Part shown: in pieces, positions 6,771 to 61,115 of the stretch | How positions within the stretch are numbered: position 1 is the stretch's first letter | How the letters are laid out: each line of letters opens with the position of its first letter | Assembly: GCF_009184635.1 (NCBI RefSeq) | Contig: NZ_WELI01000003.1 | Span: 558,001 to 622,000, forward strand | DNA length: 64,000 nt | Direction: 5' to 3' | DNA from: Rudanella paleaurantiibacter | GTDB taxonomy: Bacteria > Bacteroidota > Bacteroidia > Cytophagales > Spirosomataceae | The notes under the pieces: model-generated | The model's database searches: none | What the model was told of the DNA's origin: nothing | Seen by the model: the letters and a program-made list of their open reading frames with translations, nothing else | Made by a program: the position numbers and the translations under genes

Positions 6771-6851
6771 GCGATTGAGCGATTGAGTGATTGCGTGATT
6801 GCGTGATTGCGTGAATGGCGAAAGCGTGAGGGATGGTCCTTCACGCTTTCG
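6771..6851 (+). repeat. Octamer tandem repeat running into a terminator hairpin
   Basis: Directly after the stop codon at 6770, an 8-bp unit of the form G(C/T)GATTG(A/C) is repeated five times (6771-6810). It merges into a hairpin in which CGAAAGCGTGA (6819-6829) pairs with TCACGCTTTCG (6841-6851), followed by GTCGTTTTTA. The hairpin plus T-run looks like a Rho-independent terminator of the surface protein gene. The octamer array is one of the low-complexity intergenic repeats described in the findings. Confidence 0.7.
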
Positions 6852-6877
6852 TCGTTTTTACGCCAGGCAACATTCTG

Positions 6878-6919
6878 GTTTTGCCGGGCCGCGTTCGGCC
6901 GAACGCGGCCCGGCAAAAC
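6878..6919. repeat. 42-bp perfect palindrome
   Basis: Positions 6878-6898 are the exact reverse complement of 6899-6919, with no central spacer. The outer arm reads TTTTGCCGGGCCGCGTTCGG. The 12-mer TTTTGCCGGGCC recurs in two other intergenic gaps: as its complement at 20464-20475 and directly at 55628-55639. This suggests a dispersed element that is present here as a head-to-head pair. Confidence 0.8.
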
Positions 6920-7005
6920 GCGGCCTGCACCCTTTCACCGCCCGGCGGCCTAGTCTTTCACCACCTGACCAGCGGCTCACTCTTTCGCGCTTTCACTCGT
7001 TCGCA

Positions 7006-7038
7006 TTTAGGATTAACCCGCCCCTCGGGCTATCTTTG
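7006..7038 (+). promoter_or_regulatory. Predicted pyrB promoter
   Basis: TATCTTTG at 7031-7038 matches the Bacteroidota -7 consensus TAnnTTTG. A TTTAG at 7006-7010 is at -33 spacing (20-nt gap), though the consensus would be TTTG. The predicted transcript would have a leader of about 20 nt before the ATG at 7067. No Shine-Dalgarno sequence is seen. Confidence 0.5.
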
Positions 7039-7066
7039 CCAAACCGTTTGCCGCCCCTCTATTATT

Positions 7067-7987
7067 ATGCAATCGCTCAGTACGCGTCACCTGCTGGGAA
7101 TCAAAGACCTGACCGAATCCGACATTCAGCTCATTCTGGCCACTGCCAAGGAATTTAAGGATGTCATCAATCGCCCGATCAAAAAAGTCCCTTCGCTGCG
7201 CGACATTACGATTGCCAACGTTTTCTTCGAGAATTCGACCCGCACCCGGCTCTCGTTTGAACTGGCTGAAAAACGGCTCTCGGCCGATGTCGTAAACTTT
7301 TCGGCTTCGGGCTCCTCGGTCAAGAAAGGCGAAACCCTGCTCGATACGGTCAACAACATTCTGGCCATGAAGGTCGATATGATTGTGATGCGGCACAGCA
7401 GCCCCGGTGCGCCCCACTACTTAGCGAAACACATTCCGGCCAACGTAGTCAACGCGGGCGATGGCACCCACGAGCACCCGACGCAAGCCCTGCTCGACTC
7501 GTTTTCGATTCAGCAGAAACTGGGCGACGTAGCCGGTAAGCGCGTGGCTATTATCGGCGATATTACCCACTCGCGGGTGGCCTTGTCCAACATTTTCTGT
7601 TTGCAAAAGCAAGGGGCCGAGGTGATGGTGTGCGGCCCGGCAACGCTGATTCCCAAACACATCAGCGCTCTGGGTGTGCGCGTTAGCCACGATGTACGCG
7701 AGGCTCTCAACTGGTGCGACGTAGCTAACGTACTGCGTATTCAGTTGGAACGGCAACAGATCAAGTACTTCCCTTCGTTACGGGAATATTCGCTGTACTA
7801 CGGGATTTCAAAGCAGATGCTCGACGAGCTGGACCGCTCGATTGTGCTGATGCACCCCGGCCCGATAAACCGGGGGGTTGAACTCACCTCCGACGCTGCC
7901 GACTCGCACCACAGCATCATTCTCGATCAGGTTGAAAACGGGGTGGCCGTTCGGATGGCGGTCCTGTACCTGCTGGCGCAGTTGTAA
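7067..7987 (+). CDS. pyrB: Aspartate carbamoyltransferase catalytic subunit
   Basis: This enzyme joins carbamoyl phosphate and L-aspartate to form N-carbamoyl-aspartate, the committed step of pyrimidine synthesis, in the cytoplasm. The 306-residue product has the carbamoyl-phosphate motif STRTR (57-61), HPTQ (137-140) and the aspartate-domain motif HPGPINRG (263-270). An upstream in-frame start at 6833 exists, but it would read through the terminator and palindrome. The ATG at 7067 gives the usual family length and follows a good -7 box. No regulatory pyrI subunit is adjacent. The gene converges on gldA, with a hairpin between them. Confidence 0.95.
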   Translation: MQSLSTRHLLGIKDLTESDIQLILATAKEFKDVINRPIKKVPSLRDITIANVFFENSTRTRLSFELAEKRLSADVVNFSASGSSVKKGETLLDTVNNILAMKVDMIVMRHSSPGAPHYLAKHIPANVVNAGDGTHEHPTQALLDSFSIQQKLGDVAGKRVAIIGDITHSRVALSNIFCLQKQGAEVMVCGPATLIPKHISALGVRVSHDVREALNWCDVANVLRIQLERQQIKYFPSLREYSLYYGISKQMLDELDRSIVLMHPGPINRGVELTSDAADSHHSIILDQVENGVAVRMAVLYLLAQL

Positions 7988-8045
7988 CGAGTGTAGGATA
8001 AGTTCATACGAAAGACTTGCGAAAAAAGTTTTGGACAGGATTCCA

Positions 8046-8089
8046 GGATAAACCGGATTTATTCAGTTGGAAGAAAATCCGGTTTATCC
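8046..8089. terminator. Bidirectional hairpin between convergent pyrB and gldA
   Basis: GGATAAACCGGATTT (8046-8060) pairs perfectly with AAATCCGGTTTATCC (8075-8089) across a 14-nt loop. It has no strong T-run, but its place between two convergent genes fits a shared terminator. Confidence 0.55.
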
Positions 8090-8154
8090 GATACGTCGGC
8101 CCGGCTGTAATCCTCTGGGCCGCCAGGCGGTCAAAAAGAAACGTTAACCCCCGT

Positions 8155-9075
8155 TTACTTCTGCGTGAGTTCGCGGAAGATTCCCTCCAGATTACTCGCT
8201 TGTTGACGCAGGCCAACGAGTGTGAGCCCACGGTCGGCCGCGAGCCGAAATACCGACGCCCGCAAATCGGTGCCAGAATCGGCTGTCATGCGGTACTGCC
8301 CCGGTGCAATGCGCTCCACGGTTTGTACACCCGGTATCTGTTGGAGGGCTTCGGCATCGGCGAGGTCGGTTTCAAACTCGGCAACCACAGTTAGCCCTCC
8401 CTCGGCCTGAGCGCGCAATTCGGTCAGGGGGCTGTCGGCTACAAGCTCTCCCCCACTGATAATCACCACCCGGTCGCAGAGGGCCTCAACCTCCTGCATG
8501 ATGTGGGTCGAAAACAAAACAGTTTTGTCGCGACCTACCTCTCGGATCACCTGCCGGATTTCGGAAAGCTGATTGGGGTCGAGGCCAGTAGTAGGCTCGT
8601 CGAGGATGAGCACCGGCGGATTATGCAGCAGCGCCTGCCCCAAACCCACCCGCTGGCGGTAGCCTTTCGACAACTGCCCGATACGTTTGTGCTGCTCCTG
8701 CCCCAGTCCCACCCGCTCGATCACCTGGGTTATTTCGCGGGTGAGCCCTTCCCCCCTGAGGCCGTGCAGTTCGCCCGAAAACCGCAGGTATTCTTTCACG
8801 TACAGATCCAGATACAACGGGTTATGCTCGGGCAGGTAGCCTACACTCCGGCGCACGTCCATCGGGGCTGTCCGCACATCAAAGCCGTTCACCAGTACGG
8901 TACCCTCGGTGGGCGGCAGGTAGCCCGTTGCCACTTTCATGGTTGTCGACTTACCGGCTCCGTTGGGGCCCAGAAAGCCAACAATCTGGCCCGGCTCCAC
9001 CGAAAACGAAATCCCGTTGACGGCACGCTGCCCCGAATCGTACTGCTTGGTTAACTGCTGAACGCGTATTGACAT
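8155..9075 (-). CDS. gldA: Gliding-type ABC transporter ATP-binding protein GldA
   Basis: This is a 306-residue ABC ATPase with Walker A GPNGAGKST (36-44), Q-loop region LPEHNPLY (81-88), signature LSKGYRQ (135-141), Walker B LILDEP (156-161) and a D-loop. The sequence around the signature and the roughly 80-residue C-terminal extension resemble GldA, the ATPase that works with the membrane proteins GldF and GldG in Bacteroidota gliding. A generic ABC-2 exporter ATPase is the alternative, because gldF and gldG are not adjacent here. Upstream on the minus strand, a GTTG and a TAGCTTTT about 17 nt apart could be a weak promoter. The gene ends convergently with pyrB. Confidence 0.8.
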   Translation of the reverse strand: MSIRVQQLTKQYDSGQRAVNGISFSVEPGQIVGFLGPNGAGKSTTMKVATGYLPPTEGTVLVNGFDVRTAPMDVRRSVGYLPEHNPLYLDLYVKEYLRFSGELHGLRGEGLTREITQVIERVGLGQEQHKRIGQLSKGYRQRVGLGQALLHNPPVLILDEPTTGLDPNQLSEIRQVIREVGRDKTVLFSTHIMQEVEALCDRVVIISGGELVADSPLTELRAQAEGGLTVVAEFETDLADAEALQQIPGVQTVERIAPGQYRMTADSGTDLRASVFRLAADRGLTLVGLRQQASNLEGIFRELTQK

Positions 9076-9291
9076 GAATTGAAAAGCTAAAACACTGGCT
9101 ATTAGACAACCGACCGATGAGCCCTAAAAACGGGTGAGCCGGGGATGCCCCTTGAAGGCTATGAACTGGTAGCTCCCCAAGTTGGGCATACAAAGGCCAA
9201 TATCCAGCTTCTAACGTCTGACATCCAAAAAGTATTTCTATTTTTAGCGTTTAAACGAGAAAATCTCCCTTCCGTTGCTGTCTCTGCCTTT

Positions 9292-10956
9292 ATGAGCAAC
9301 TCTCTTTTTCGCAAAAAAACGGTAAACTCGGTTCTTGCCGAAGCCGAACACGGTGCCTCCTCACAAATGATGAAAATTCTGGGTGTCCGCGACCTTACCT
9401 CGCTGGGCATCGCGGCCATTATTGGGGCAGGTATTTTCAGTACTATCGGGCGGGCTTCGTTCAACGGCGGTCCGGCGGTATCGTTACTATTTGTTTTCAC
9501 GGCCATTGCCTGCGTGTTTACGGCCCTTAGTTACGCCCAGTTTGCCAGTACGGTGCCCGTGAGCGGCAGCGCCTACACCTATGCCTACGTGGCTTTCGGC
9601 GAAATTTTTGCCTGGATCATCGGGTGGTCGCTCATTCTCGAATATGCCGTTTCGAATATGGTCGTGGCTATTTCGTGGTCCGAATATTTTACGGGGATGC
9701 TGGCCGGATTCGGCGTCAGTTTTCCCGGATGGCTTTCCAGCGATTATGGGTCAGCGGCCCGCGCCTACGAGGCCGTGCAGCAGTCGGCGGCATCGGCTAC
9801 GGATGCCCAGCGTGTGCTGGCCGCAGCGTACGAGGCCGCTCCCAGCATCGGTAGCCTTAAAGTAATTATGGACTTACCGGCCGGGTTAATCACGGTACTG
9901 ATTACCGCTCTTGTGTACATTGGTATCAAAGAGTCGCGCAATGCGAGCAACGCCCTGGTGGTGCTTAAACTGGCCGTCATTGCCCTGGTAATTGGAGCCG
10001 GCGTATTTTATATCAAGCCCGCCAACTGGACGCCCTTTGCTCCGAACGGCGTGGGCGGGGTACTGAGTGGGGTAGCGTCGGTGTTTTTTGCGTTTATCGG
10101 TTTCGATTCCATCTCGACAACGGCCGAGGAGTGCCGCAATCCGCAACGCGACCTGCCGCGTGCCATGATTTACTGCCTTGTTATCTGTACGGTGCTTTAC
10201 GTACTTATTACGCTCGTACTCACAGGCATGGTGAATTACAAGGAGTTGGGCGTCGACGATCCGCTGGCATACGTGTTTCAGAAGGTAGGTGTGGATGCTA
10301 TGGCCGGGATTATCTCGGTGAGCGCGGTCGTAGCCATTACGAGTGCCCTGCTTGCCTACCAGCTGGGGCAACCCCGCATCTGGATGACCATGAGCCGTGA
10401 CGGACTGTTGTGGCCCATTTTCTCGAGCATCCACCCCAAATACCGCACGCCCTGGTTCTCAACCATGGTTACGGGGCTGCTCGTAGCACTGCCCTCGCTG
10501 TTTCTCGACATGCAGTTTTTCATTGACCTCACGAGCGTCGGGACGTTTTTTGCCTTTATTATGGTGTGCGGGGGGATTCTGTACCTCGACGCCAAGGGCA
10601 TTTCGGCCCAATCGAAGTTTAAAGTGCCGTATGTAAACGGCAAGTACCTGATTGGGATAGGCCTGATTGGGGTAGTAGCCTGGGGATTGTCGGGCGGATG
10701 GCTGTTTAGCTCAATGGCCGAGAAGCCTCTGCTGTATGTGTTTTACCTGACTTGGGCCGTACTGTCGGTGCTGGCCTTCCAACGCAATTTCTCCCTGTTA
10801 CCGGTGCTGGGTATCCTGACCAATCTGTACCTCATGACCGAGCTGGGCCTGAGCAACTGGCTCATTTTTGTGGTTTGGCTCGTAATCGGGCTGGTGCTTT
10901 ATTTTTCGTATGGCTACCGGAAGAGTAAGCTAAATCGAAGCCCGGTCCAACAGTAA
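9292..10956 (+). CDS. APC-family amino acid permease
   Basis: This is an inner-membrane amino acid transporter of 554 residues with 12-14 hydrophobic segments. The N-terminus is cytoplasmic, then TM1 carries the substrate-binding GIAAIIGAGIFSTIG motif typical of the cationic amino acid/YfnA-like branch of the APC superfamily. An EECRNPQRDLPRAM loop is also characteristic. The frame is open further upstream to 9145, but the added 49 residues are not family-like, while MSNSLFRKK at 9292 matches typical starts. Substrate cannot be read from sequence. It stands alone between gldA (divergent) and a convergent methyltransferase. Confidence 0.85.
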   Translation: MSNSLFRKKTVNSVLAEAEHGASSQMMKILGVRDLTSLGIAAIIGAGIFSTIGRASFNGGPAVSLLFVFTAIACVFTALSYAQFASTVPVSGSAYTYAYVAFGEIFAWIIGWSLILEYAVSNMVVAISWSEYFTGMLAGFGVSFPGWLSSDYGSAARAYEAVQQSAASATDAQRVLAAAYEAAPSIGSLKVIMDLPAGLITVLITALVYIGIKESRNASNALVVLKLAVIALVIGAGVFYIKPANWTPFAPNGVGGVLSGVASVFFAFIGFDSISTTAEECRNPQRDLPRAMIYCLVICTVLYVLITLVLTGMVNYKELGVDDPLAYVFQKVGVDAMAGIISVSAVVAITSALLAYQLGQPRIWMTMSRDGLLWPIFSSIHPKYRTPWFSTMVTGLLVALPSLFLDMQFFIDLTSVGTFFAFIMVCGGILYLDAKGISAQSKFKVPYVNGKYLIGIGLIGVVAWGLSGGWLFSSMAEKPLLYVFYLTWAVLSVLAFQRNFSLLPVLGILTNLYLMTELGLSNWLIFVVWLVIGLVLYFSYGYRKSKLNRSPVQQ

Positions 10957-10988
10957 AGAATAAAAGGGAGAATAGAATAAGTAAGGCT

Positions 10989-11726: not shown

Positions 11727-11775
11727 ACAGACTGAGGGGAAGTACTAATCAATGTATAATGAACAATGTACAGTT

Positions 11776-11898
11776 TCAGTACTGGACATTCGGACTTCAG
11801 ACACTGGACATTAGACTTACTACCTTTAGATATGGAGGTCTAACGTCTAATGTCCAACGTCTAATGTCTAATATCCAACATCTAATGTCCAGTACTGA
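11776..11898. repeat. Dispersed imperfect palindrome, GTCTAATGTCC family, copy 1
   Basis: The outer arms TCAGTACTGGACATT (11776-11790) and AATGTCCAGTACTGA (11884-11898) are perfect reverse complements. The interior consists of degenerate TCTAATGTCC-like units running in opposite orientation on each side. The same element recurs at 60857-60958 with the same ends. This copy has about 21 extra bases in the right half that look like one more tandem unit. A weaker fragment lies at 9201-9230. Confidence 0.8.
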
Positions 11899-11922
11899 GT
11901 ATTTTATATTCACTCAGGCCAC

Positions 11923-27793: not shown

Positions 27794-27814
27794 AAGGGGG
27801 AGGGAGGAAAAAGA

Positions 27815-27865
27815 GAAAGGAGAAGGGAGAAGTATGCGTAGAGCCACCTTTTCCCTTCTCCTTTC
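27815..27865. repeat. Polypurine/polypyrimidine hairpin between panD and UPF0104 genes
   Basis: GAAAGGAGAAGGGA (27815-27828) is the perfect complement of TCCCTTCTCCTTTC (27852-27865), and the pairing extends imperfectly outwards with more GGAG/GAAG-type purine runs. It fills most of the 81-bp gap between the panD stop and the next start. It belongs to the low-complexity intergenic hairpin class. Confidence 0.7.
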
Positions 27866-27874
27866 GCCCTTTTC

Positions 27875-28228
27875 CTATCCTTTTATTAGTCGATTATTTT
27901 CATCGGGAAACACCACAGTTGGTTTGTGGGCGCGGGCCTCGTCGGGGGTCATCATGACGTACGAGATAATGATGATGATGTCGCCAACCTGCGCCCGGCG
28001 GGCAGCCGCTCCGTTGAGGCAAATGATACCGGAGCCGCGCTCGCCCTTGATCACGTAGGTAATCAGGCGCTCGCCATTGTTGTTATTGACAATGTGCACC
28101 TGCTCATTTTCCATAATGCCGGCCGCATCCATGAGGTCTTCGTCGATGGTAATGCTTCCCACATAGTTGAGTTCGGCCTGAGTCACGCGGACCCGGTGCA
28201 GTTTCGATTTTAATACGGTAACGAACAT
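27875..28228 (-). CDS. panD: Aspartate 1-decarboxylase
   Basis: This 117-residue proenzyme decarboxylates L-aspartate to beta-alanine for pantothenate and coenzyme A. The chain is cut at Gly24-Ser25 in YVGSITID to create the pyruvoyl cofactor at Ser25. Lys9, the substrate-contact SKLHRV segment and ICLNGAAAR near residue 70 are conserved. Length matches the family. It faces the carboxynorspermidine dehydrogenase gene across a 237-bp divergent intergenic region. Downstream, a polypurine hairpin separates it from the UPF0104 gene, so it may or may not be co-transcribed. Confidence 0.95.
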
Positions 28229-28351: not shown

Positions 28352-28438
28352 GGTTTGTGGTTTATCATGTATCGGTTTTCATAGGCAGGAGGCTCCACCC
28401 GTTGCAGTTTCGGCCTGAGCGACCATAAACCACCAACC
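28352..28438. repeat. Imperfect GTTTATGG-type hairpin in the leader of the dehydrogenase gene
   Basis: GGTTTGTGGTTTAT (28352-28365) is complementary to ATAAACCACCAACC (28425-28438) at 13 of 14 positions, with more AACCATAAAC units following up to 28460. It resembles the repeats at 29684 and 37997 in vocabulary but not in exact sequence. Confidence 0.55.
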
Positions 28439-28465: not shown

Positions 28466-29674
28466 ATGTCCCGAGTTTTGATTATTGGCGCCGGGGGCGT
28501 CGGCAGTGTAGTAGCGCACAAATGCGCCATGAACAGCGACGTTTTTACCGACATCATCCTGGCCAGCCGCACGAAGTCGAAATGTGATAAAATTGCCGCC
28601 GAAATTAGGGAGATGCACGGCGTAACCATCCGTACCGATGCCGTTGATGCCGATGTGGTGGCCGAGATGGTCGCCCTGATTCGGAAGTACGAGCCCAAGC
28701 TGGTGATCAACGTGGCCCTGCCCTACCAGGACCTGCCCATCATGGACGCCTGCCTCGAAACGCGCACGCACTACATGGATACGGCCAACTACGAGCCGAA
28801 AGATGTAGCTAAGTTTGAGTACAGCTGGCAGTGGGCCTACAAAGAGCGGTTTGAGCAGGCCGGTATCATGGCGTTGCTCGGCTGCGGGTTCGATCCCGGT
28901 GCCACGCAGGTGTTTACGGCCTATGCCGCCAAGCACCATTTCGACGAGATGCACTACCTCGACATTGTGGACTGCAACGCGGGCAACCACGGCAAGGCAT
29001 TTGCGACCAACTTCAACCCCGAAATCAATATCCGCGAGATTACCCAGCCGGGCCGCTACTGGGAGAATGGCGAGTGGGTCGAAATTCCGGCCATGAGCCA
29101 GCACAAACCCATCGATTACCCCGAAATCGGGCCGAAAGAGTCGTACGTGCTGTACCACGAAGAACTCGAATCGCTGGTGAAGAACTTCCCGACCCTGAAG
29201 CGGGCGCGTTTCTGGATGACCTTCGGGCAGGCGTACCTCACCCACCTCGAAGTGCTGCAAAACGTGGGCATGACGAGCATTCAGCCGATTAACTTTGGAG
29301 GGCAGCAAATTGTACCGCTCGAATTCCTCAAAGCTGTACTCCCCGCCCCCGACACCCTCGGCGAAAACTATTCGGGCCAAACGAGTATTGGTTGCCAGAT
29401 CAAAGGCGTGAAAGACGGTGAAGACCGCACCTATTACATCTGGAACAACTGCGACCATGCCGAGACCTACAAAGAGGTGCGCGGACAGGCCGTGAGCTAC
29501 ACGACGGGTGTACCCGCCATGATTGGCGCTATGCTCATGCTGCGGGGCGACTGGATGAAGGCGGGTGTCTGGAATTGCGAAGAGCTCGACCCCGATCCGT
29601 TCATCGAGCAAATGAACAAACAGGGGCTTCCCGTGCAGGAGCGCGTCAACGTACCGCTGCCGCACGAGTACTAG
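28466..29674 (+). CDS. Carboxynorspermidine (carboxyspermidine) dehydrogenase
   Basis: This 402-residue saccharopine-dehydrogenase-family enzyme makes carboxy(nor)spermidine from a diamine and aspartate semialdehyde by reductive condensation. The dinucleotide-binding motif GAGGVGSVVAHKCA (8-21) is followed by ASRTKSKCDKI and, later, GCGFDPGATQVFTAY. These fit the CANSDH group rather than lysine-pathway saccharopine dehydrogenase. The matching decarboxylase, nspC, lies 1.8 kb downstream on the same strand, which supports the assignment. Whether the product is spermidine or norspermidine cannot be read from sequence. The mRNA leader contains an imperfect repeat, and a perfect 24-bp-arm hairpin follows the stop. 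Confidence 0.87.
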   Translation: MSRVLIIGAGGVGSVVAHKCAMNSDVFTDIILASRTKSKCDKIAAEIREMHGVTIRTDAVDADVVAEMVALIRKYEPKLVINVALPYQDLPIMDACLETRTHYMDTANYEPKDVAKFEYSWQWAYKERFEQAGIMALLGCGFDPGATQVFTAYAAKHHFDEMHYLDIVDCNAGNHGKAFATNFNPEINIREITQPGRYWENGEWVEIPAMSQHKPIDYPEIGPKESYVLYHEELESLVKNFPTLKRARFWMTFGQAYLTHLEVLQNVGMTSIQPINFGGQQIVPLEFLKAVLPAPDTLGENYSGQTSIGCQIKGVKDGEDRTYYIWNNCDHAETYKEVRGQAVSYTTGVPAMIGAMLMLRGDWMKAGVWNCEELDPDPFIEQMNKQGLPVQERVNVPLPHEY

Positions 29675-29683
29675 GGTTTATCG

Positions 29684-29745
29684 TTTATGGTTTTTAGTTT
29701 ATCGTTTTTAGTGAGTACCAGAAACGATAAACTAAAAACCATAAA
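29684..29745. repeat. GTTTATGG-type hairpin after the dehydrogenase gene
   Basis: The 24-bp arm at 29684-29707 (beginning TTTATGGTTTTTAG) is the perfect complement of 29722-29745, with a 14-nt loop. It lies 9 bp after the TAG at 29672-29674 and could act as a terminator. The left flank repeats the same vocabulary (GGGTTTATCG), so the locus looks like a tandem unit copied in inverse. Confidence 0.75.
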
Positions 29746-29782
29746 CCCACTATATTGGTCTGACGTTTAGCTCCTTTTTGCC

Positions 29783-32666: not shown

Positions 32667-32760
32667 AGCGATGAGTTATGAGCGATAAACGATGAGTGGG
32701 CTGACGCCATAAAATGGTTGTGTCAGCCCACTCATCGTTTATCGCTCATAACTCATCGCT
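32667..32760. terminator. 39-bp-arm hairpin filling the gap between nspC and the DUF4136 gene
   Basis: Positions 32667-32705 are the exact reverse complement of 32722-32760. The arms start just after the nspC stop (32664) and end one base before the minus-strand stop codon (32761), so the hairpin occupies the whole intergenic space. Each arm contains ATGAGTTATG and GATAAACGAT words and ends in GGGCTGAC near the loop. It probably ends transcription in both directions. Confidence 0.8.
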
Positions 32761-34481: not shown

Positions 34482-34539
34482 AGCACAAATATAGGAGAAT
34501 ACAGGAGTGAGGAGTAAGGGAGAAGGGAGTGAGGAGAAG

Positions 34540-34610
34540 GGAGTGAGGAGATAGGAGTTGCTGACGCGTAAGCAATACTCGTGCGTCAGCAACTCCTATC
34601 TCCTCACTCC
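34540..34610. repeat. GGAGTGAGG-type hairpin between aminotransferase and aroB
   Basis: A 28-bp arm at 34540-34567 (containing GGAGTGAGGAG and GTTGCTGACGC) is the exact complement of 34583-34610 across a 15-nt loop. More purine-rich GGAG/AGGAG units extend the symmetry imperfectly from about 34500 to 34681. GTTGCTGACGC carries the GCTGACGC core shared with hairpins at 14979, 22250 and 32700. Confidence 0.8.
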
Positions 34611-34681
34611 TATCTCCTCACTCCCTTCTCCCTTACTCCTCACTCCTATCTCCTCACTCCCTTCTCCTTCCTCCCCCTTTC

Positions 34682-35885: not shown

Positions 35886-35955
35886 CGATGCGAGATAAAC
35901 GATGAGTGATGAATCCTCTTGTAACAGTGAACCGTTCATCGCTTATCTCGCATCG
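35886..35955. repeat. CGATGAG-type imperfect hairpin
   Basis: CGATGCGAGATAAACGATGA (35886-35905) is complementary to TCATCGCTTATCTCGCATCG (35936-35955) at 19 of 20 positions, with a 30-nt loop. It fills the gap between the lipoprotein stop (35960) and the aminotransferase start (35866). It shares GATAAACGATGAGT with the hairpin at 32667. Confidence 0.7.
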
Positions 35956-37980: not shown

Positions 37981-37996
37981 CTGTATTAGTTTAGGG

Positions 37997-38077
37997 TTTA
38001 TGGTTTGTAGTTTATGGTCCGTTTGCCCCTAACTGATCGCAGCTGGTGACCAAAAACCATAAACTACAAACCATGAA
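37997..38077. repeat. Hairpin between susC and susD (system 1)
   Basis: TTTATGGTTTGTAGTTTATGG (37997-38017) is complementary to 38057-38077 at 20 of 21 positions, separated by 39 nt. It lies between susC (stop at 38083) and susD (start at 37980), where it could reduce or tune susD expression relative to susC. The second system, by contrast, has only 12 bp between susC and susD. Confidence 0.65.
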
Positions 38078-38082
38078 CGCAT

Positions 38083-45028: not shown

Positions 45029-45040
45029 CGCGACAAACGA

Positions 45041-49381: not shown

Positions 49382-50635
49382 ATGGACGAAACACAGTCCA
49401 TCATGCGTGAATCCACTCAAACTGTGCCTCTGGCTTTACACGGCGGCCCCAAAACGGTGCAGTCCGAATTTGCATGGCCTATTTTCGACGAACGGGAGGT
49501 GAACACCGTAGCCGAACTGGTCCGTACCGGACAGTGGGGCAACCCCGACTGTGCGGGGCTGGTAGCCGAGTTCGAAGCCCAGTTTGCGGCTTATTGCGGC
49601 ACCAAATACGCCATTAGCTGCGTCAACGGGTCGGTATCGCTACGGCTGGCGCTGATGGCCTGTGGGGTGCGCCCCGGCGACGAGGTCATTGTGCCCCCTT
49701 ACACGTTTATTGCCACAGCCTCGACCGTGCTGGAGGTGAACTGCGTGCCGGTTTTTGTGGACCTTGACCCCGACACGTATAACCTCGACCCGGCCCACAT
49801 CGAAGCGGCCATTACCGACCGCACCCGAGCCATTATCCCGGTTCATTTTGCAGGATTACCCTGCGATATGGACGCTATTCTGGCCATTGCCCAACGGTAC
49901 AACCTGCGGGTTATTGAAGATGCCGCCCACGCACACGGGGCCGAGTACCGGGGCCGTAAACTTGGTTCGATAGGCGATTTGGGCAGTTTCAGCTTTCAAT
50001 CGTCGAAAAATCTGACCTCAGGTGAAGGCGGCATGGTTATCACCAACGACGATGCCCTGTACCGCACCGTCGAATCGCTGCGCAACGTGGGGCGGCTACC
50101 CGAAGGGCAGTGGTACGACCATTTTAACCCCGGCTGTAACTACCGAATCAGTCCCCTTCAGGCCGGATTGCTCATCGAACAGCTTAAGCGGCTGGACGAC
50201 CAAACCCGCCAACGGCACGAAAATGGGCTTTACCTCGACTCGCTCCTCGGTGCCATCGACGGAATCAGGCCCATGAGTCGGGGCGACGCGCCCCTCGTGC
50301 ACGCCCGGCATCTGTATATGTTTCGGTACGACAACCGGGTATTTGGCAATCTGCCCAAAGCCGAATTTGTACAAATGCTGGCAGCCGAAGGTGTCCCCTG
50401 CTCAGGTGGGTATCCGCACCCGCTGTACAAACAGCCTCTGTTTCAAAACCGCAACTGGATGTGCTACGCCATCCCCGACTCGGTGGATTATACAGACGTA
50501 CATTGCCCCGTGGCCGAACGGGCCTGCTCCGACGAAGGCATCTGGATTTTTCAGCACGCCCTGCTCGGCTCCCGCACCGATATGGATGCCTTTGCCGAGG
50601 CCATCCGCAAAATCCAGCAGGCTGTGAATAGATAA
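49382..50635 (+). CDS. DegT/DnrJ/EryC1/StrS-family sugar aminotransferase
   Basis: This 417-residue fold-I PLP enzyme of the sugar-aminotransferase family adds an amino group to a keto-sugar. It has WGNPDCAGLVAEFE, GDEVIVPPYTFIATAS, VIEDAAHAHGAEYRGRK and the PLP lysine region SFQSSKNLTSGEGGMV. The start may be 49382 or eight codons later (MRESTQTV). It shares a probable operon with the epimerase upstream. The stop codon runs into an AATGAGT heptamer array, so the end of the gene has served as seed or target for the repeat. Confidence 0.87.
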   Translation: MDETQSIMRESTQTVPLALHGGPKTVQSEFAWPIFDEREVNTVAELVRTGQWGNPDCAGLVAEFEAQFAAYCGTKYAISCVNGSVSLRLALMACGVRPGDEVIVPPYTFIATASTVLEVNCVPVFVDLDPDTYNLDPAHIEAAITDRTRAIIPVHFAGLPCDMDAILAIAQRYNLRVIEDAAHAHGAEYRGRKLGSIGDLGSFSFQSSKNLTSGEGGMVITNDDALYRTVESLRNVGRLPEGQWYDHFNPGCNYRISPLQAGLLIEQLKRLDDQTRQRHENGLYLDSLLGAIDGIRPMSRGDAPLVHARHLYMFRYDNRVFGNLPKAEFVQMLAAEGVPCSGGYPHPLYKQPLFQNRNWMCYAIPDSVDYTDVHCPVAERACSDEGIWIFQHALLGSRTDMDAFAEAIRKIQQAVNR

Positions 50636-50703
50636 TGAGTAATGAGTAATGAGTAATGAGTAATGAGTAATGAGTAATAGATAATGAATAATGGACAATG
50701 ATA
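50634..50703 (+). repeat. AATGAGT heptamer tandem array
   Basis: AATGAGT is repeated six times without gaps (50634-50675), then four degenerate copies (AATAGAT, AATGAAT, AATGGAC, AATGATA) continue to 50703. The first copy overlaps the aminotransferase stop codon. Beyond it, TGATTATCAAC and CTATTCATTC-like words (to about 50765) have counterparts at 60990-61024, so the array is part of a larger repeat. Confidence 0.85.
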
Positions 50704-50919
50704 CACTATCCCTGATTATCAACAGGTTCACTATTCATTCTACACTGTACATTATACAGTTGGTTTTGACTCAGTAAGACAATTTAAAGTGCAAGTAGAT
50801 ACGGATTTCTTCCTCTTTTTAACCGCCTTTTTTCACCCCCCGACACCGGGACACCGGCCGCCAAACACTAAAAACCGGCATACCAGTCGCCGTAAACCCC
50901 ATTACCCCCACCTCACTGT

Positions 50920-55589: not shown

Positions 55590-55640
55590 CGTCTCAGTTC
55601 AAGGTTTGGTGTCAGTATGTTGCCGGTTTTGCCGGGCCAC

Positions 55641-58214
55641 TCAGGGCGGAGTCAGTACCGTAGCCCGGCTGGCGCGTCCGGCCGCGTCAAAACTCTTCAG
55701 TTTAACCGGGCCACTCACCCGTACCGGTTTCTGGTACAGGGCTGAGGTGCTGTTCGGCTCCAAACCATCGGTCGTGTACCGGATCTGAAGCCCCGGCAAC
55801 TCGACATTAGCCTCCAGCAGACCGTTCTGGATGCGGGCACCCGGTGGTGACAGACGGTAGTTGTACCCTCCGTTCAAGCGGGCCAGCCGGGGCAGGTCGC
55901 GCTGGGCCAGGGTGTTGGCAAACACATTCCAGCCAGCCGCAATGGCCCGCTCACGCGCGGCCCGGTCGTCAATCGTTTCCCAGGGACGTTCGGGAGCCCA
56001 GGCACTCTCGGCAAAGCCCATCAGCTTGGGTAGCATGTAGTACTCAGCCATATCGCGACCTTTCACGGTCTCGCTCCAGAGTTGCGCTTCTACCCCCCTG
56101 ATGTTCGGGCGGGCGTCGGGTCGGAGTCGCTCCCGGCCCGTAAAATCGAGTGGGTCGCCCATGGCCGTTTTGTACGTCGTTTTAAACATATCATTGGGCG
56201 CAAAGGTCCAGTTGCTGCGCGTATCCACGTAGCCCGCCCAGTACAGGCCAGGCTCTTCGGGGTCGTTATTATAGGCCAGGTCGAAATAGAAATTCGATAC
56301 GTTGCAGAGTACCACGGGGTAACCCGCGTTGGCCAGCCGATTACCCAGGTCAGGGTCGAACAGGTTATTCCAAATGTAGGGCACTACCCGACGGCCCACA
56401 AACTCCCGATTAGGCACGTAAGCACCGTTGGCCGCTTTGGTGAGGGCTACCTCTTCCCAACCATGAATTTCGAGTTGGCGCGGTTCGAGTCGTTTGAGCA
56501 AGGTACGCACAAAGTAAGCCTGCAAGTTTTTGGGATCTTTGATGGCCGGATTCTCACGCAGGAGTTTGGCCGCCACCGGCGACTGTGTCCAGGCCCCTTC
56601 GGGCACTTCGTCGCCCCCAATGTGCATCACCTCCATCGGCACGCCCGCCTGTTTGTACATCCGGGTTACCTCGTCCACTACCTTTTCGTAAAACCGGTAC
56701 GTCGATTCGAGGCCCACGCTCACCACATTGTCTTTGTAGCCCTGTGCCGACTGATACACCGAGCGGTCGGCCGGGTCAATGAGCCGGTACTCGGCGGCTT
56801 CGGCGGGTTTACCCTCTTTCATCAGCCGTTGGTAGCGGGCCTCCATCGCTTTGATAGCCGCCCGCGCATGACCGGGAAAATTCAGTTCGGGAATCACCCG
56901 GATGTGCCGGGCGTGGGCGTATTTCAGAATCTCGATAAAATCAGCTTTGGTATAAAAGCCGCTACCGTATTTGCCTTCTTCGTTTGCTTTCGGGCCAGAA
57001 CCGTAGGCCGGATGCAGGGCCGGAGCCTCTTTGCCCGACGTATGCTGGCGTTGGGCACCCACCTGCGTCAGTTCGGGCAGACCGTCGATTTCGAGCCGCC
57101 AGCCTTCGTCTTCAGTGGTGTAAAACAAAAACTGATTGACCTTGTAAAACGCCAGCAGATCAAGAACCCGCAGAATGGTTTCTTTGGTCTGGAAGTTTCG
57201 GCTCACATCGAGGTGCAACCCCCGAAACCCGAACCGGGGGGCGTCATCAATCTCGGTAAAAGGCAGCGCCACCGGTTGGTCGGGGGCTTTGTACGCTTCA
57301 AGGGGCAACAAAGCCAGCAGGCTCTGCGTGCCGTAAAATACTCCGGCGGCATCGCTGCCGGTGATGCTTACACCCTCAGCCTGAATCCGCAACTGGTAAG
57401 CCTCCCGGCTTTTACCCGCCACCTGAACCGGTCCCGTTTTGAGGACAATAGCAGGGCCGGTGGGGGGAGTCGTCACCGTCTGAAACGTTTTGCCGGTCAT
57501 CTGCTTCAGCTTTTCGGCCAGCAACGCGGCTTCGCCCGCGAGGCCGGGGCCGGCATAAATCGGCATCGACGCCGACAGGGCCAGCGTACCGGAGCTTGTC
57601 GACAAGCGCACCGGGGCCGGAATCACCCGCTGCAACTGAGCGGCCGGCAGTAAAGTGGCCGTTTGGTTTTGCCGAAAAACGCCCTCCGGCGAATACGGGG
57701 GCTCGTGGTCGGCGGAGCCACGGAGCCGCTGCTCATTACGGACAAACGGCCGAACGGTGTAGTTAGCAATGGGCACGATTTGCTCTTCCCGCCCGGCATC
57801 GTCGTACAGCACCATATACGGCCCAAGCGGAGCATCGGTCACTTTGGCCACGCCCTCGGTGCCCTCGTACCGGATGGTTACGGTAGCACCCGGATCAAGC
57901 CGGAAGCCCGCGTTGGGCGTGAGCTTATACCAGTCGCCGTTGATGTGCTGTACCGTGCCCGGCTGCGGGCTGCGGGGTTTGAGCATTGGTCGGGGCGACA
58001 TGTTGAAAAACAAGGCCCAGTTGCGATCGGTGAGCGGTGTGTCGCCGGTGTTGGTCAGATCAAAGCGGGCTTCGAAACCGTTGGGTACGGGTGTGAAGTT
58101 GCTTACCAGCTCCCAGCTCAGGGTGACCGACCCGGCCGACTCGTTTTTCTGGCAACTTACGCCAGCCAGTAACCCAATCAGACAGATCAGGGCAGAGTAC
58201 AGTACGGTGCGCAT
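55641..58214 (-). CDS. GH20 beta-N-acetylhexosaminidase (lipoprotein)
   Basis: This is an 857-residue lipoprotein (lipobox LAGVSC, Cys21). In order it has a chitobiase-type carbohydrate-binding domain (about 28-155), a GH20b domain (about 195-315) and a GH20 TIM barrel (about 325-770). The catalytic HIGGDEV has Asp535-Glu536, for substrate-assisted catalysis. A C-terminal chitobiase-type beta domain ends the protein. It should release terminal N-acetylhexosamine residues in the periplasm or at the cell surface. It sits in a block with a ROK kinase, an AraC/XylR regulator and a divergent NagX/HGSNAT-like gene, all consistent with amino-sugar use. Confidence 0.92.
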   Translation of the reverse strand: MRTVLYSALICLIGLLAGVSCQKNESAGSVTLSWELVSNFTPVPNGFEARFDLTNTGDTPLTDRNWALFFNMSPRPMLKPRSPQPGTVQHINGDWYKLTPNAGFRLDPGATVTIRYEGTEGVAKVTDAPLGPYMVLYDDAGREEQIVPIANYTVRPFVRNEQRLRGSADHEPPYSPEGVFRQNQTATLLPAAQLQRVIPAPVRLSTSSGTLALSASMPIYAGPGLAGEAALLAEKLKQMTGKTFQTVTTPPTGPAIVLKTGPVQVAGKSREAYQLRIQAEGVSITGSDAAGVFYGTQSLLALLPLEAYKAPDQPVALPFTEIDDAPRFGFRGLHLDVSRNFQTKETILRVLDLLAFYKVNQFLFYTTEDEGWRLEIDGLPELTQVGAQRQHTSGKEAPALHPAYGSGPKANEEGKYGSGFYTKADFIEILKYAHARHIRVIPELNFPGHARAAIKAMEARYQRLMKEGKPAEAAEYRLIDPADRSVYQSAQGYKDNVVSVGLESTYRFYEKVVDEVTRMYKQAGVPMEVMHIGGDEVPEGAWTQSPVAAKLLRENPAIKDPKNLQAYFVRTLLKRLEPRQLEIHGWEEVALTKAANGAYVPNREFVGRRVVPYIWNNLFDPDLGNRLANAGYPVVLCNVSNFYFDLAYNNDPEEPGLYWAGYVDTRSNWTFAPNDMFKTTYKTAMGDPLDFTGRERLRPDARPNIRGVEAQLWSETVKGRDMAEYYMLPKLMGFAESAWAPERPWETIDDRAARERAIAAGWNVFANTLAQRDLPRLARLNGGYNYRLSPPGARIQNGLLEANVELPGLQIRYTTDGLEPNSTSALYQKPVRVSGPVKLKSFDAAGRASRATVLTPP

Positions 58215-58239
58215 AATTTTTGTGTGTCAGTAGCCTTTA

Positions 58240-58259
58240 TAGTACTCTGTTCCGTACTA
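58240..58259. promoter_or_regulatory. Operator-like inverted repeat in the GH20 / NagX-like divergent promoter
   Basis: TAGTAC (58240-58245) and GTACTA (58254-58259) are perfect inverted halves around an 8-bp spacer, in the 84-bp gap between two divergent genes of the amino-sugar block. GAGTACAGTAC-type words occur nearby at the GH20 start. It could bind a regulator such as the XylR-like protein, but no link is shown. Confidence 0.35.
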
Positions 58260-58298
58260 AAAATACCATTCGGCCCATGCGGCTTTTTTGATACGTTT

Positions 58299-59396
58299 AT
58301 GATTCAACCCACCAACCGACTTATCTCGCTCGATGCCGTTCGGGGCTTCACCATCGCGGCCATGATTATGGTCAATTTTCCGGGCACCGAAGAGCACGTG
58401 TATTTTACGCTCCGGCACTCCAAATGGAACGGCCTGTCGTTTACCGACCTCATTGCCCCGGTGTTTCTGTTTGTGGTGGGCGTGTCTATTGCCCTCGCCT
58501 ATTCGGGCAAACGCGACTCAGCCGCCCCACGCGGGCCGTTGTACCGCAAAATTGTGATACGGGCGCTCAAGATTTACGCCGTCGGGATGTTTCTGAACCT
58601 CATGCCCGACTTTAATCTGGCCGACGCCCGCTGGACCGGCACCCTCCACCGCATTGCCTTTGTGTTTCTGTTCTGCGCTCTGCTGTACCTCAACACCAAC
58701 TGGAAACAACAGGTCTGGATTGCCGCGCTCACGCTGGTAGCCTACTGGCTTGCCCTCACGCTTATTCCCTCGCCCGACCTGGGCCGAGTGGTGCTGGAAC
58801 CGGGCCAAAACCTGGTGGCCTGGTTCGACCGGCAGTTTCTGCCCGGCCGGATGTGGCAGGGCACCTGGGACCCGGAGAGCATTTTAAGCACCTTTCCGGC
58901 CACGGTCACGGGCATTACGGGCCTACTCGCCGGGCGGTGGATGCTCAGTTCGGCCAGCCCCACCGAAAAAGTGGCCTACCTCATGACCGTTGGCTTTTTT
59001 ACCACCGCTGCCGGGTATTTCTGGGGACTTACATTCCCGGTCAACGAAGGGCTCTGGACCAGTTCGTTTGTGCTTGTCACCTCCGGGTTTGCGGCTATGC
59101 TGTTGGGGGCACTTTACTTTCTGGTCGATGTACTCGGCTACCGAAACGGCACCGCACCGGGCATTGTATTTGGGGCTAACGCTATTGCTGTATACGTCAT
59201 GGCCGATGTACTGGCTCTGTTTTTCTACCGGCTCAAATTTGGCGGCCTCCCCCTCAACGAACTCGTGGTAGAAGAGCTGATCAACGTAGGTTTCCAGCCC
59301 GAACTCGCCAGCCTATTGTACGCCCTGTTCTTTGTGGCCGTCAACTACATACCGGCCTATTGGCTTTACCAACGCAAGATTTTCATTAAACTGTAA
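58299..59396 (+). CDS. NagX/HGSNAT-like membrane acyltransferase
   Basis: This is a 365-residue protein with ten or so membrane segments of the heparan-alpha-glucosaminide N-acetyltransferase-like (DUF5009/NagX) family. The N-terminus has RLISLDAVRGFTIAAMIMVNFPG and the family hallmark LRHSKWNGLSFTDLIAPVFLFVVGVSIAL, with the catalytic histidine in RHSKWNG. Relatives move acetyl groups onto glucosamine residues across a membrane or accompany GlcNAc catabolism (NagX). The start at 58299 is used because earlier sequence is not family-like. It is divergent from GH20, so a shared regulator is likely. Confidence 0.85.
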   Translation: MIQPTNRLISLDAVRGFTIAAMIMVNFPGTEEHVYFTLRHSKWNGLSFTDLIAPVFLFVVGVSIALAYSGKRDSAAPRGPLYRKIVIRALKIYAVGMFLNLMPDFNLADARWTGTLHRIAFVFLFCALLYLNTNWKQQVWIAALTLVAYWLALTLIPSPDLGRVVLEPGQNLVAWFDRQFLPGRMWQGTWDPESILSTFPATVTGITGLLAGRWMLSSASPTEKVAYLMTVGFFTTAAGYFWGLTFPVNEGLWTSSFVLVTSGFAAMLLGALYFLVDVLGYRNGTAPGIVFGANAIAVYVMADVLALFFYRLKFGGLPLNELVVEELINVGFQPELASLLYALFFVAVNYIPAYWLYQRKIFIKL

Positions 59397-59400
59397 TTCT

Positions 59401-59434
59401 GTTGGGCCGGCCTCAAAGCAGAGACCGGCCCAAC
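59401..59434. terminator. Bidirectional terminator hairpin
   Basis: GTTGGGCCGG (59401-59410) is the perfect complement of CCGGCCCAAC (59425-59434). It lies between convergent genes ending at 59396 and 59444. Confidence 0.7.
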
Positions 59435-59443
59435 GAGATTATC

Positions 59444-60820
59444 TCAACCCTTGCCGCCCAGTTTACGGGCTTTATACTCCTGAAACCGCTTCTGGTATTG
59501 CTCGGCCTGTTCGGGCGTGAAGCGCTTCTGATATTCGGCGGGCAAATCGAGCCGTTCGGGGGCTAAAGCCGGGGCCTGGTCAATAAGGGTGTTTTGTCCT
59601 TTGGCGTTTTTAGCCAGTACAAACGAGTCGTATTTCTCGCCCGTAACGGTGTATGCCTGATACGTCAGCCGGTCGCCATCAATGGAGATGGCTTGATAGA
59701 GCTGCGTGTTCGACGCAGCCCGGTCCATCCAGGTTTGCAGCCCAATATCGTACATTTTCGGCCCACTCACCGACACTACGTAAATGGGGCCATCCGGACG
59801 TTTGCGGCTCTTGCCCAGCGGCATGTTAATACCCCGGCCGTAAGTATGGTCGTGCCCCTGCAACACCAAATCAACGTTATATTTCTTGTAAATGGGTTCC
59901 ATCCGGTCGCGCCACTCGTTGTTATCACGGCCCTGCTTGGTCGAATAAATCGGGTGGTGATGCGTTACGATGGTCCACCGGTTGGGGTTGTCTGCCAACG
60001 TTTTGTTCAGCCATTCGGCCTGAAGGCGCATCACGGCCGAGTCGAGAATGGCGGCCTGCGAATTGAGCGACACAAACCGAACGCCCTGATAATCGAGGTA
60101 ATAAGCGGTTTCTTCCAACCCTTTGGGGCCATTTTCGGGGAGCGAAAACGACGGTCGCCAGTGCCGTGATACCCGCACCTTACCCGTTTCATCCCGGAAA
60201 TATTCGTGATTACCGGGCGCGGGCAAGGCGGGCAACATCCCGTTGATCCAGCCCCCTGCTTCGAACCACTCCCCCCATTGCCAATCAGCATTGGACGTGG
60301 TGATGAGGTCGCCGGCATGAATCATCAGACTCGCCGTAGGCAAGGTGGTGTAGGCCCCGCGTACCGCCCGCGACCACAGCGACCGAATGTCGTTCTGGGC
60401 ATCACCAAAGTACAGAAACGAAAACGGCGCGGGTTTGTCGGTAGCCGTTTTAAACTGAAACCACTCGCTCCAGAGCTTTCCATCGCCCACCCGATAGCTG
60501 TATTTGGTCGCGGGTTTCAACCCGTTGAACTGCACCGAATGGTACAGCACCGTGCGGCCATCGAGCACCACCCGTTCGGTGGTGGCAGTCACAAGGCTGG
60601 CACTCGCCACAAAGTCGCCGGAGGGATCGGCTTCAGCAATAGCCCCCACGGCCCCGGTCACGGTGGAGTCGGTGCGCCAGTTGACCGATTGCGACGTGGC
60701 GGGGTTGGCCTGCCAGCCGAGAATCAGGCGGTCGGGGTACGGCCCCGGCGGGTACTCTTTGTGCACCTGCGCCATAGCCGTTGTCAGGCTCAGACCCAAA
60801 CACAGTAAAATGAATTTCAT
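59444..60820 (-). CDS. Purple acid phosphatase-like metallophosphoesterase
   Basis: This is a 458-residue secreted phosphatase. After a signal peptide (1-17) it has a fibronectin-like N-terminal domain (about 28-125; GWQANPATSQSVNWRT, LKPATKYSYRVG). The calcineurin-like domain carries FGDAQND (Asp140), HAGDLI (Asp171), GNHEYF (Asn204-His205), THHHPIY and GHDHTYGR, the full set of dinuclear metal ligands. It should hydrolyse phosphate esters in the periplasm. A coiled, charged C-terminal tail of about 40 residues is unusual. It is convergent with the NagX-like gene. Confidence 0.9.
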   Translation of the reverse strand: MKFILLCLGLSLTTAMAQVHKEYPPGPYPDRLILGWQANPATSQSVNWRTDSTVTGAVGAIAEADPSGDFVASASLVTATTERVVLDGRTVLYHSVQFNGLKPATKYSYRVGDGKLWSEWFQFKTATDKPAPFSFLYFGDAQNDIRSLWSRAVRGAYTTLPTASLMIHAGDLITTSNADWQWGEWFEAGGWINGMLPALPAPGNHEYFRDETGKVRVSRHWRPSFSLPENGPKGLEETAYYLDYQGVRFVSLNSQAAILDSAVMRLQAEWLNKTLADNPNRWTIVTHHHPIYSTKQGRDNNEWRDRMEPIYKKYNVDLVLQGHDHTYGRGINMPLGKSRKRPDGPIYVVSVSGPKMYDIGLQTWMDRAASNTQLYQAISIDGDRLTYQAYTVTGEKYDSFVLAKNAKGQNTLIDQAPALAPERLDLPAEYQKRFTPEQAEQYQKRFQEYKARKLGGKG

Positions 60821-60856
60821 AAATACGGGGGAGAAATAAATGTATAATGAATAATT

Positions 60857-60958
60857 TCAGTGCTGGACATTCGGACTTCAGACATTAGACGTTAGACGTA
60901 CTACCATTCTGTAGGGAGGTCTAACGTCTAATGTCCAACATCTAATGTCCAGTACTGA
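60857..60958. repeat. Dispersed imperfect palindrome, GTCTAATGTCC family, copy 2
   Basis: This has the same ends as copy 1 at 11776-11898: TCAGTGCTGGACATT (60857-60871) and AATGTCCAGTACTGA (60944-60958), with one base change at one end. The right half matches copy 1 apart from the missing 21-bp tandem unit. A second small inverted repeat (GTAAAGTG 60969-60976, CACTTTAC 61017-61024) follows, carrying TGATTATCAAC shared with the region after the heptamer array at 50712. Confidence 0.82.
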
Positions 60959-61115
60959 GATGAATACGGTAAAGTGTACAATGAAATAACTGATTATCAA
61001 CCGGCATTCATTATTCACTTTACATGGTACATCCACTCAGGGAACGCCTGAAAACACTCTATAAAACAGGAAACCGGGGGCGCTATACTGATGACCGCCC
61101 ACCGGGGGTAGTTCC

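What the first reader, a model, noticed from the sequence alone, without database searches (positions are those of the whole stretch)
6771..61030. A recurring class of low-complexity intergenic hairpins, different in each gap
Eleven gaps carry inverted repeats made of short repeated words: 6771-6851, 11776-11898, 27815-27865, 28352-28438, 29684-29745, 32667-32760, 34540-34610, 35886-35955, 37997-38077, 50634-50765 and 60857-61024. The arms of a given hairpin are nearly or fully identical (39 of 39, 28 of 28, 24 of 24, 20 of 21, 19 of 20), yet each locus has its own word set. Several fill the gap from stop codon to stop codon. Perfect arms that share no sequence across loci point to a mechanism that creates or repairs inverted copies locally, for example template switching or snap-back replication, with selection for terminator-like folding. 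I know no named element with this design.
Basis: partly seen in the sequence, partly recalled or inferred. Interest (0 to 1): 0.75.

Follow-up and report, generated by a model that had tools for sequence, protein, structure and literature searches.

The report
Gene-end hairpins of seven-base words
Behind many genes of this bacterium sit hairpins whose two arms are built from repeated seven- or eight-base words; a close relative often keeps a hairpin in the same place but with other words, and word use shifts across whole genomes, which suggests an unknown copying process on top of ordinary replication errors.

Summary
Nine of the 11 stretches fold far better than shuffles; 28352 does so only weakly and 50634 not at all. 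11776 and 60857 are copies of one dispersed element. Over longer stretches, period 7 dominates intergenic arrays. The hairpins sit just after stop codons and avoid divergent gaps, as other hairpins do, but mostly lack a U-tract. Against a close relative (about 90% identical DNA) both arms often change together, a few loops are inverted, and some gaps hold a hairpin of another word class. Word sets are genome-wide: an octamer dialect differs sharply between congeners in three genera, and one heptamer set is nearly confined to this species and that relative. Local slippage plus template switching can explain matching arms, but not shared words around different loops; I infer a trans-copying step, agent unknown (no reverse transcriptase match). 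Heptamer intergenic repeats, also as inverted pairs, are known in Xanthomonas, so this is a new variant of a known kind. A function at gene ends is inferred.

The parts
6771..6820 (+). octamer array (GCGATTGA / GTGATTGC words), one-armed, directly after the stop codon at 6770
   Evidence: lag-8 self-match 0.64; the relative has GTGAAAGA words in the same place
6814..6856 (+). ordinary hairpin beside the array, followed by a T run; conserved in the relative
   Evidence: z -6.7 for 6805-6860
11776..11898 (.). copy of a dispersed hairpin element (ends TCAGTACTGGACATT...AATGTCCAGTACTGA) with heptamer-periodic interior; 35 nt longer than in the relative
   Evidence: 40 strong matches in own genome; z -8.95
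27808..27872 (.). purine-word heptamer hairpin (GGAGAAG class), 2 nt downstream of the stop of the gene at 27875-28228 (-)
   Evidence: z -7.5
29683..29746 (.). heptamer hairpin, GTTTATG/GTTTTTA class, 8 nt after the stop at 29674; in the relative the loop is inverted (judged by hand) and another hairpin is inserted
   Evidence: z -12.2
32667..32760 (.). heptamer hairpin, GATGAGT/GATAAAC class, 39/39 arms, fills the convergent gap; the relative has an octamer GTGAAAGA hairpin here
   Evidence: z -19.2
34495..34675 (.). heptamer hairpin, GGAGTGA class, with inner clamp GTTGCTGACGC/GCGTCAGCAAC; compared stretch 63 nt (9 x 7) longer than in the relative
   Evidence: z -14.9 for 34530-34620
35886..35955 (.). 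heptamer hairpin, GATGAGT/GATAAAC class, 4 nt from a stop codon; words differ in both arms in the relative
   Evidence: z -5.6
37996..38078 (.). heptamer hairpin, GTTTATG class, 4 nt from a stop codon; both arms carry a different word set in the relative
   Evidence: z -8.4 for 37997-38077
50634..50765 (+). AATGAGT heptamer array plus a fragment with a TGATTATCAACAGGT core; not a stable hairpin
   Evidence: lag-7 self-match 0.63; z +1.05; the relative has unrelated sequence at this place
60857..61024 (.). second copy of the 11776 element, next to or inside an AATG-type element; the relative has only the AATG-type hairpin
   Evidence: z -10.4 for 60857-60960
28352..28438 (+). doubtful member: carries GTTTATC/CATAAAC-type words and a lag-7 signal, but folds weakly, lies in a divergent gap and is almost unchanged in the relative; perhaps a leader of the saccharopine dehydrogenase gene
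   Evidence: searches (0.42; 2 of 127 differ; z -3.2), Pfam

Best explanation
These are heptamer (some octamer) array hairpins at gene 3' ends. I propose two steps. (1) A short array of the genome's current word set is copied in trans to a place just behind a stop codon, giving one-armed arrays. (2) Replication slippage lengthens it in 7- or 8-nt steps, and template switching at the fork writes the same words in reverse complement on the other side of whatever local sequence lies there, which becomes the loop. Repeated switching keeps the arms matched and sometimes inverts the loop. Hairpins are kept at gene ends because they act there, most likely in ending or protecting transcripts; the words themselves are free to change. 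Shown: period, placement, co-changing arms, inverted loops, turnover at orthologous gaps, genome-wide word sets. Inferred: template switching as the agent, the trans-copying step and its enzyme, and the function.
For: Period: intergenic arrays in 760 kb, period 7 = 26, period 8 = 3, other periods 4-13 = 0-2 each, one shuffle 0; in 43 Cytophagales loci period 7 = 58, 14 = 16, others 0-3 (17 of 43 loci have a period-7 array). Placement: share of gaps with a periodic hairpin, convergent 20/95 and 19/76, tandem 43/430 and 42/343, divergent 4/126 and 1/101 (G000, G001); in tandem gaps 74 of 86 lie nearer the stop codon, median 8 nt from it. Co-change: 12 of 35 gaps have a hairpin in both species; arm identity within a species 0.95, between species 0.67 and 0.64, flank 0.93; 38 Watson-Crick double changes vs 4.3 expected in 656 pairs of 29 hairpins, 11 of them transversions. 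Loops: of 42 gaps tested 5 inverted (one dismissed as trivial, one near-palindromic), 13 direct, 18 unresolved, 6 too short. One-armed arrays: 71 of 169 array loci (both species together) lack a partner arm. Trans: GAAA/GATT octamer counts G000 29/94, G001 206/17, and similar contrasts within two more genera, G010 8/71 vs G056 104/5, G028 12/51 vs G049 39/4; GTTTATSG set 17 in G000, 14 in G001, 1 in G058, 0 in 58 other genomes. Loops: 12 of 82 match elsewhere in the DNA held of the same species; 5 of these are the mobile types and 5 are arrays running into the loop.
Against: No trans-copying agent was found: no RVT_1 match in either genome; of six loci with REP-type transposase genes four have palindromes of other sequence beside them, but two have purine-word inverted repeats, one with a period-7 array, some hundred bases off, so a link to the purine class is not excluded. 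Co-change could also come from selection on RNA pairing; 27 of 38 double changes are transitions, and 88 of the 656 pairs changed on one side only. Non-periodic hairpins show the same preference for gene ends, so placement is not special to this class, and the 'periodic' set holds some ordinary terminators. Few have a U-tract (>=5 T of 8: 10% vs 8% background), though the mean is slightly raised (2.80 vs 2.27, p 0.0004), so a termination role is doubtful. 18 of 42 loop pairs are unresolved. Loop uniqueness was tested only on the DNA held. Dialect polarity rests on two further genomes of the genus, one mixed and one 71% complete. Not every genus flips: some genomes are mixed (G031 97/101, G055 63/44) and many have no such octamers. 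Several octamer loci are unchanged in both species. Only part of each genome was compared for gaps.
Confidence: 0.5

Rival explanations
1. Purely local origin: each hairpin arises and evolves by slippage and snap-back or template switching at its own gap, with no exchange between loci.
For: Arm co-change, inverted loops, length changes in units, e.g. 63 nt at 34495 and 35 nt at 11776, loops mostly not shared in the DNA held.
Against: The same words at many dispersed loci of one genome and sharp dialect differences between congeners; class switches at orthologous gaps.
Confidence: 0.15
2. All are copies of mobile elements (MITE- or REP-like) that insert at gene ends.
For: True for 11776 and 60857 and for AATG-type elements with empty sites in the other species. 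Nested insertions occur.
Against: The other hairpins share words but, in the DNA held, hardly any loops, change words in place, and rarely show clean empty sites: 3 of 55 gaps, all AATG-type.
Confidence: 0.2
3. Ordinary intrinsic transcription terminators whose arms happen to be of low complexity.
For: Placement after stop codons and depletion in divergent gaps, shared with other hairpins; strong folds; mean T count after the hairpin slightly above background (2.80 vs 2.27 of 8, p 0.0004).
Against: >=5 T of 8 in 10% of periodic hairpins, 8% of background, 27% of other hairpins; mean of other hairpins 3.42. A period of exactly 7 is not required for termination.
Confidence: 0.15

Closest known systems
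Heptanucleotide intergenic repeats of Xanthomonas and Nostoc (GGGAATC, GGGGAYT; PMC4692102)
   Same: Degenerate heptamer arrays, mostly intergenic, close behind the upstream gene, underrepresented between divergent genes, with inverted pairs of repeat sites (70 cases in one strain with 186 repeat patterns); length and sequence vary between close species.
   Different: That paper describes one G-rich word family per organism; here several word classes stand side by side, arms match over about 20-70 nt, and dialects and classes switch between relatives. The G-quadruplex idea does not apply to most words here.
TAACTGA direct repeats of Beggiatoaceae, Cyanobacteria and some Bacteroidetes (PMC4679880)
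   Same: Intergenic heptamer arrays in unrelated lineages; indels mostly in 7-nt steps in Cyanothece; a range of mixed heptamers in Microcystis.
   Different: In the main Beggiatoaceae genome mostly just upstream of start codons and direct; here downstream of stop codons and often inverted.
Template-switch mutations that create and maintain hairpins (PMC8794818)
   Same: Matched arms in single events, multi-base paired changes and loop inversion.
   Different: Shown there for microRNA and rRNA stems; here on tandem arrays with words shared between loci.
REP/RAYT systems
   Same: Dispersed intergenic hairpins; Y1 transposase genes are present.
   Different: Four of six transposase loci carry other palindromes beside the gene; heptamer arms are not REP palindromes as I recall them.

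Membership tests
Heptanucleotide intergenic tandem repeats | tandem units of 7 nt | tested here: met
   10 of 11 loci; genome stretch. 6771 has 8-nt units and so does not meet it.
Heptanucleotide intergenic tandem repeats | intergenic, close to the upstream gene's end | tested here: met
   (hairpins); arrays 26 intergenic and 4 in coding sequence at period 7
Intrinsic terminator | hairpin downstream of a stop codon | tested here: met
Intrinsic terminator | U-tract after the hairpin | tested here: not met
   10% have >=5 T of 8, background 8%, other hairpins 27%; mean slightly raised
Intrinsic terminator | transcripts end there | not testable with these tools
   needs 3'-end mapping
REP/RAYT | same hairpin beside the Y1 transposase gene | tested here: inconclusive
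   four of six loci have other palindromes; two have purine-word inverted repeats some hundred bases off
MITE-like element | many near-identical copies and empty sites | tested here: met
   only for the 11776/60857 element and the AATG type; not seen for the other hairpins in the DNA held
Template-switch hairpins | joint changes of both arms and loop inversion | tested here: met
   the direct cause is not shown and single-arm changes are commoner (88 of 656 pairs)
Reverse-transcriptase-made repeats | a reverse transcriptase gene in the genome | tested here: not met
   no RVT_1 match in G000 or G001, while the search rang in 3 of 14 control genomes

The most novel reading that the evidence does not exclude
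Each genome runs a changing lexicon of seven- and eight-base words that some unknown trans-acting copying process writes behind stop codons all over the chromosome; the second arm is then made locally, so hairpin structure is conserved while the words are replaced genome-wide within the span of a genus.
Probability: 0.3. Interest if true: 0.8.

Novelty: new variant of a known kind. Interest (0 to 1): 0.6.

Why it matters
If right, intergenic hairpins can keep their place and shape while their sequence is rewritten in both arms and across much of a genome. That would make two open questions testable: why bacterial intergenic repeats favour a unit of seven, and how short dispersed repeats are homogenised without a known transposase or reverse transcriptase. 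It also warns that sequence conservation is a poor guide to functional gene-end structures in these bacteria.

Tried and rejected
Chance: rejected by shuffles. Known RNA family: no Rfam match at gathering thresholds. Reverse transcriptase writing repeats from an RNA template: no RVT_1 match in either genome. REP transposase as mover: four of six loci have other palindromes; two have only purine-word inverted repeats, one of them with a period-7 array, so this is weakened and not excluded. Stop codons in all frames as the reason for periods 7 and 8: all three frames in 25% of 87 hairpins against 10% of shuffled arms, too weak to be the cause. Hairpins moving as whole units: 12 of 82 loops match elsewhere in the same species' held DNA; 5 are mobile types, 5 are arrays running into the loop, 2 other (the whole genome was not searched with loops).

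Counts to read with care. In one search the second genome block was in the wrong orientation and gave no orthologues; it was redone. One search, an earlier and looser loop test, gave 6 inverted, 17 direct, 18 neither; one search replaces it. Of the five inverted I dismiss 121418 (score 3), and 471713 is near-palindromic (direct p 0.007); 587674 was judged by hand after the automatic test left it unresolved. One search counts 8 class switches in 55 gaps; on inspection two of them (447040, 160538) look like mobile insertions, leaving 6, while three gaps scored 'one side unclassified' (12840, 33515, 706689) look like switches; 31 hairpins had no orthologue in the DNA held. One search counted only the listed part (100 of 213 matches in G001, 50 of 145 in G000); whole counts are. 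The 29 hairpins exclude pairs with arm identity under 0.5 and use only hairpins found from the G000 side; they include 590667, a class switch, which gives 6 of the 38 double changes, and 595996, which gives 7.
Full report
WHAT IS THERE. The window lies in a 6.72-Mb Bacteroidota genome (SusD and TonB-dependent proteins). The closest named records by AroB protein (83-85% identity) are a strain labelled Flavobacterium sp. SUN052, a Cytophagales bin and a Rudanella bin, followed by Fibrella and Fibrivirga; a Rudanella-like genus is my inference. Of the 11 stretches named, nine fold far better than shuffles, 28352 weakly, and 50634 not at all; at 6771 it is an ordinary hairpin beside the array that folds. 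Ten of 11 show a period of 7 and one a period of 8.

CLASSES. The loci fall into recurring word classes: GTTTATG/GTTTTTA (29684, 37997), GATGAGT/GATAAAC (32667, 35886), purine words GGAGTGA/GGAGAAG (27815, 34540), octamers GAGTGAAT/GAGCGATT (6771). 11776 and 60857 are copies of one dispersed element with 40 strong matches in the genome, only 40 of 78 candidates having been scored. 50634 is an AATGAGT array with a fragment of an AATG-type element. 28352 has GTTTATC-type words but lies in a divergent gap upstream of a saccharopine dehydrogenase gene and is almost unchanged in the relative. So the claim of unrelated word sets is wrong, but the claim of a recurring hairpin design is right.

MORE THAN CHANCE. 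In 760 kb of the contig, 48 intergenic hairpins of all kinds reach score 17, against none in 20 shuffles; of the 52 listed 19 have best period 7 and 7 have best period 8, so heptamer hairpins are a large minority among several kinds. Intergenic arrays: 26 of period 7, 3 of period 8, 0-2 for each other period from 4 to 13; in coding sequence 4 of period 7 and 3 of period 8. In G001 the intergenic counts are 20, 6 and 0-1. The same bias to 7 (58 arrays, and 16 at 14) appears over 43 Cytophagales loci; 17 of the 43 have a period-7 array, among them 2 of 10 Algoriphagus loci; of 48 strong hairpins there 22 have period 7 and 22 none.

PLACE. With a hexamer-trained gene caller, periodic hairpins occur in 20/95 and 19/76 convergent gaps, 43/430 and 42/343 tandem gaps, 4/126 and 1/101 divergent gaps (G000, G001; divergent against rest p 0.0018 and 2e-5). 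Gaps with other hairpins only show the same bias (34/95, 50/430, 8/126 in G000), and the periodic set holds some ordinary terminators. In tandem gaps 74 of 86 lie nearer the upstream stop, median 8 nt from it. T-rich tracts (>=5 of 8) follow 10% of periodic hairpins, 8% of background places and 27% of other hairpins; the mean is slightly raised (2.80 against 2.27, p 0.0004). This suggests a gene-end role but not classical intrinsic termination.

CLOSE RELATIVE. G001 (same genus) is collinear at about 90% DNA identity. In 12 of 35 gaps both species have a hairpin; the arms agree at 0.95 within a species but 0.67 and 0.64 between species, with flanks at 0.93. The 12 include an ordinary terminator, a mobile-element site and a GTAGAGACGC hairpin, and the within-species value is partly built in by hairpin detection. 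In 29 hairpins with recognisably homologous arms there are 38 Watson-Crick double changes where about 4 are expected, beside 88 one-sided changes, of 656 pairs. Loops: 13 direct, 5 inverted, 18 unresolved and 6 too short of 42; I dismiss one of the five (score 3) and one is near-palindromic; a further inversion (587674, window 29684) shows when its true loop is compared by hand. Of 55 orthologous gaps, 25 keep their class, 8 switch class (6 after inspection), 3 show nesting, 3 clean presence or absence, 10 are unclassified on one side and 6 on both. The gap behind the DUF4136 gene (window 32667) holds a GATGAGT hairpin here and octamer hairpins in G001 and L025; among the other relatives examined, Fibrivirga (L027) and Fibrella rubiginis (L029) have hairpins of other words (heptamer-like by eye), Fibrella forsythiae (L026) a GC-rich hairpin, Spirosoma oryzae (L037) a one-sided array, Arsenicibacter (L030) a short plain hairpin, and in L024 none was detected.

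GENOME-WIDE WORDS. Octamers with GAAA against GATT: G000 29/94, G001 206/17, G002 26/42, G003 8/38. Similar contrasts occur inside two other genera (G010 8/71 against G056 104/5; G028 12/51 against G049 39/4). Not all genera behave so: G031 has 97/101, in one genus G006, G040 and G055 have 113/1, 48/5 and 63/44, and 35 and 30 of 61 genomes lack the two patterns. The reversed control pattern gives 0-6 per genome. Side by side, some octamer loci are unchanged in both species and others are rewritten in both arms, which points to replacement and not to uniform mutation. The GTTTATSG heptamer set occurs 17 and 14 times in G000 and G001, once in G058 and not in 58 others; its reversed control gives 5 in G008 and 0 elsewhere. 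The GTTTACA set is rare everywhere: 9 of 61 genomes, at most 5 matches. In the DNA held, 12 of 82 loops match elsewhere in the same species, nearly all in mobile types or where arrays run into the loop, and 71 of 169 array loci have only one arm. These facts suggest that arrays spread in trans and that the second arm is made locally.

WHAT COULD DO IT. Template switching with loop inversion is described for hairpins (PMC8794818, passages seen). A slippage origin of the seven-base unit was proposed in work cited by PMC4692102 (section read). The trans step has no known agent: no RVT_1 match; REP transposase genes have other palindromes beside them at four of six loci, and purine-word inverted repeats at two. 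Ectopic recombination or uptake of relatives' DNA remain open.

LITERATURE. PMC4692102 (sections 10 and 16 read; other passages seen) and PMC4679880 (abstract and section 10 read) describe intergenic heptamers; PMC13155455 (passages seen) reports inverted repeats after stop codons across bacteria. The listings showed nothing on genome-wide dialects or class switching of such hairpins; several listings were capped, and the library is partial. Older work on cyanobacterial heptamer repeats is recalled only, apart from its mention in PMC4692102.

Noticed in passing
28352-28438: Structured stretch between panD and a saccharopine dehydrogenase gene, 2 of 127 positions different in the relative while the surrounding aligned stretch differs by about 8%; possibly a regulatory leader. 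No Rfam match.
   Followed up: partly
11776-11898, 60857-61024: Dispersed hairpin element with 40 strong matches in the genome; often sits inside AATG-type arms that also exist with a different core (TGATTATCAACAGG). AATG-type elements show empty sites with a possible 4-bp CTTA target duplication (judged by eye).
   Followed up: partly
L167, L168, L169, L172: Y1 (REP-type) transposase genes with their own palindromes nearby (CCGTAGG, CCCTACGGG, GGCCGATAGGCC types), unrelated to the heptamer hairpins; L170 and L171 have purine-word inverted repeats instead.
   Followed up: partly
G000:C26:15489-15573 and others; 85247-85336 and others: Other dispersed long hairpins of non-heptamer type in the same contig: AACCACTGCCAGGGTCTTCGACCACTGG, CCTTCGACAGGCTCAGGCTGAC and GTAGAGACGC families.
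   Followed up: no
c12 block 314570-314784 (G000:C12:714570-714784): An octamer hairpin with the 11776-type element in its loop, in both species: nested hairpins.
   Followed up: partly
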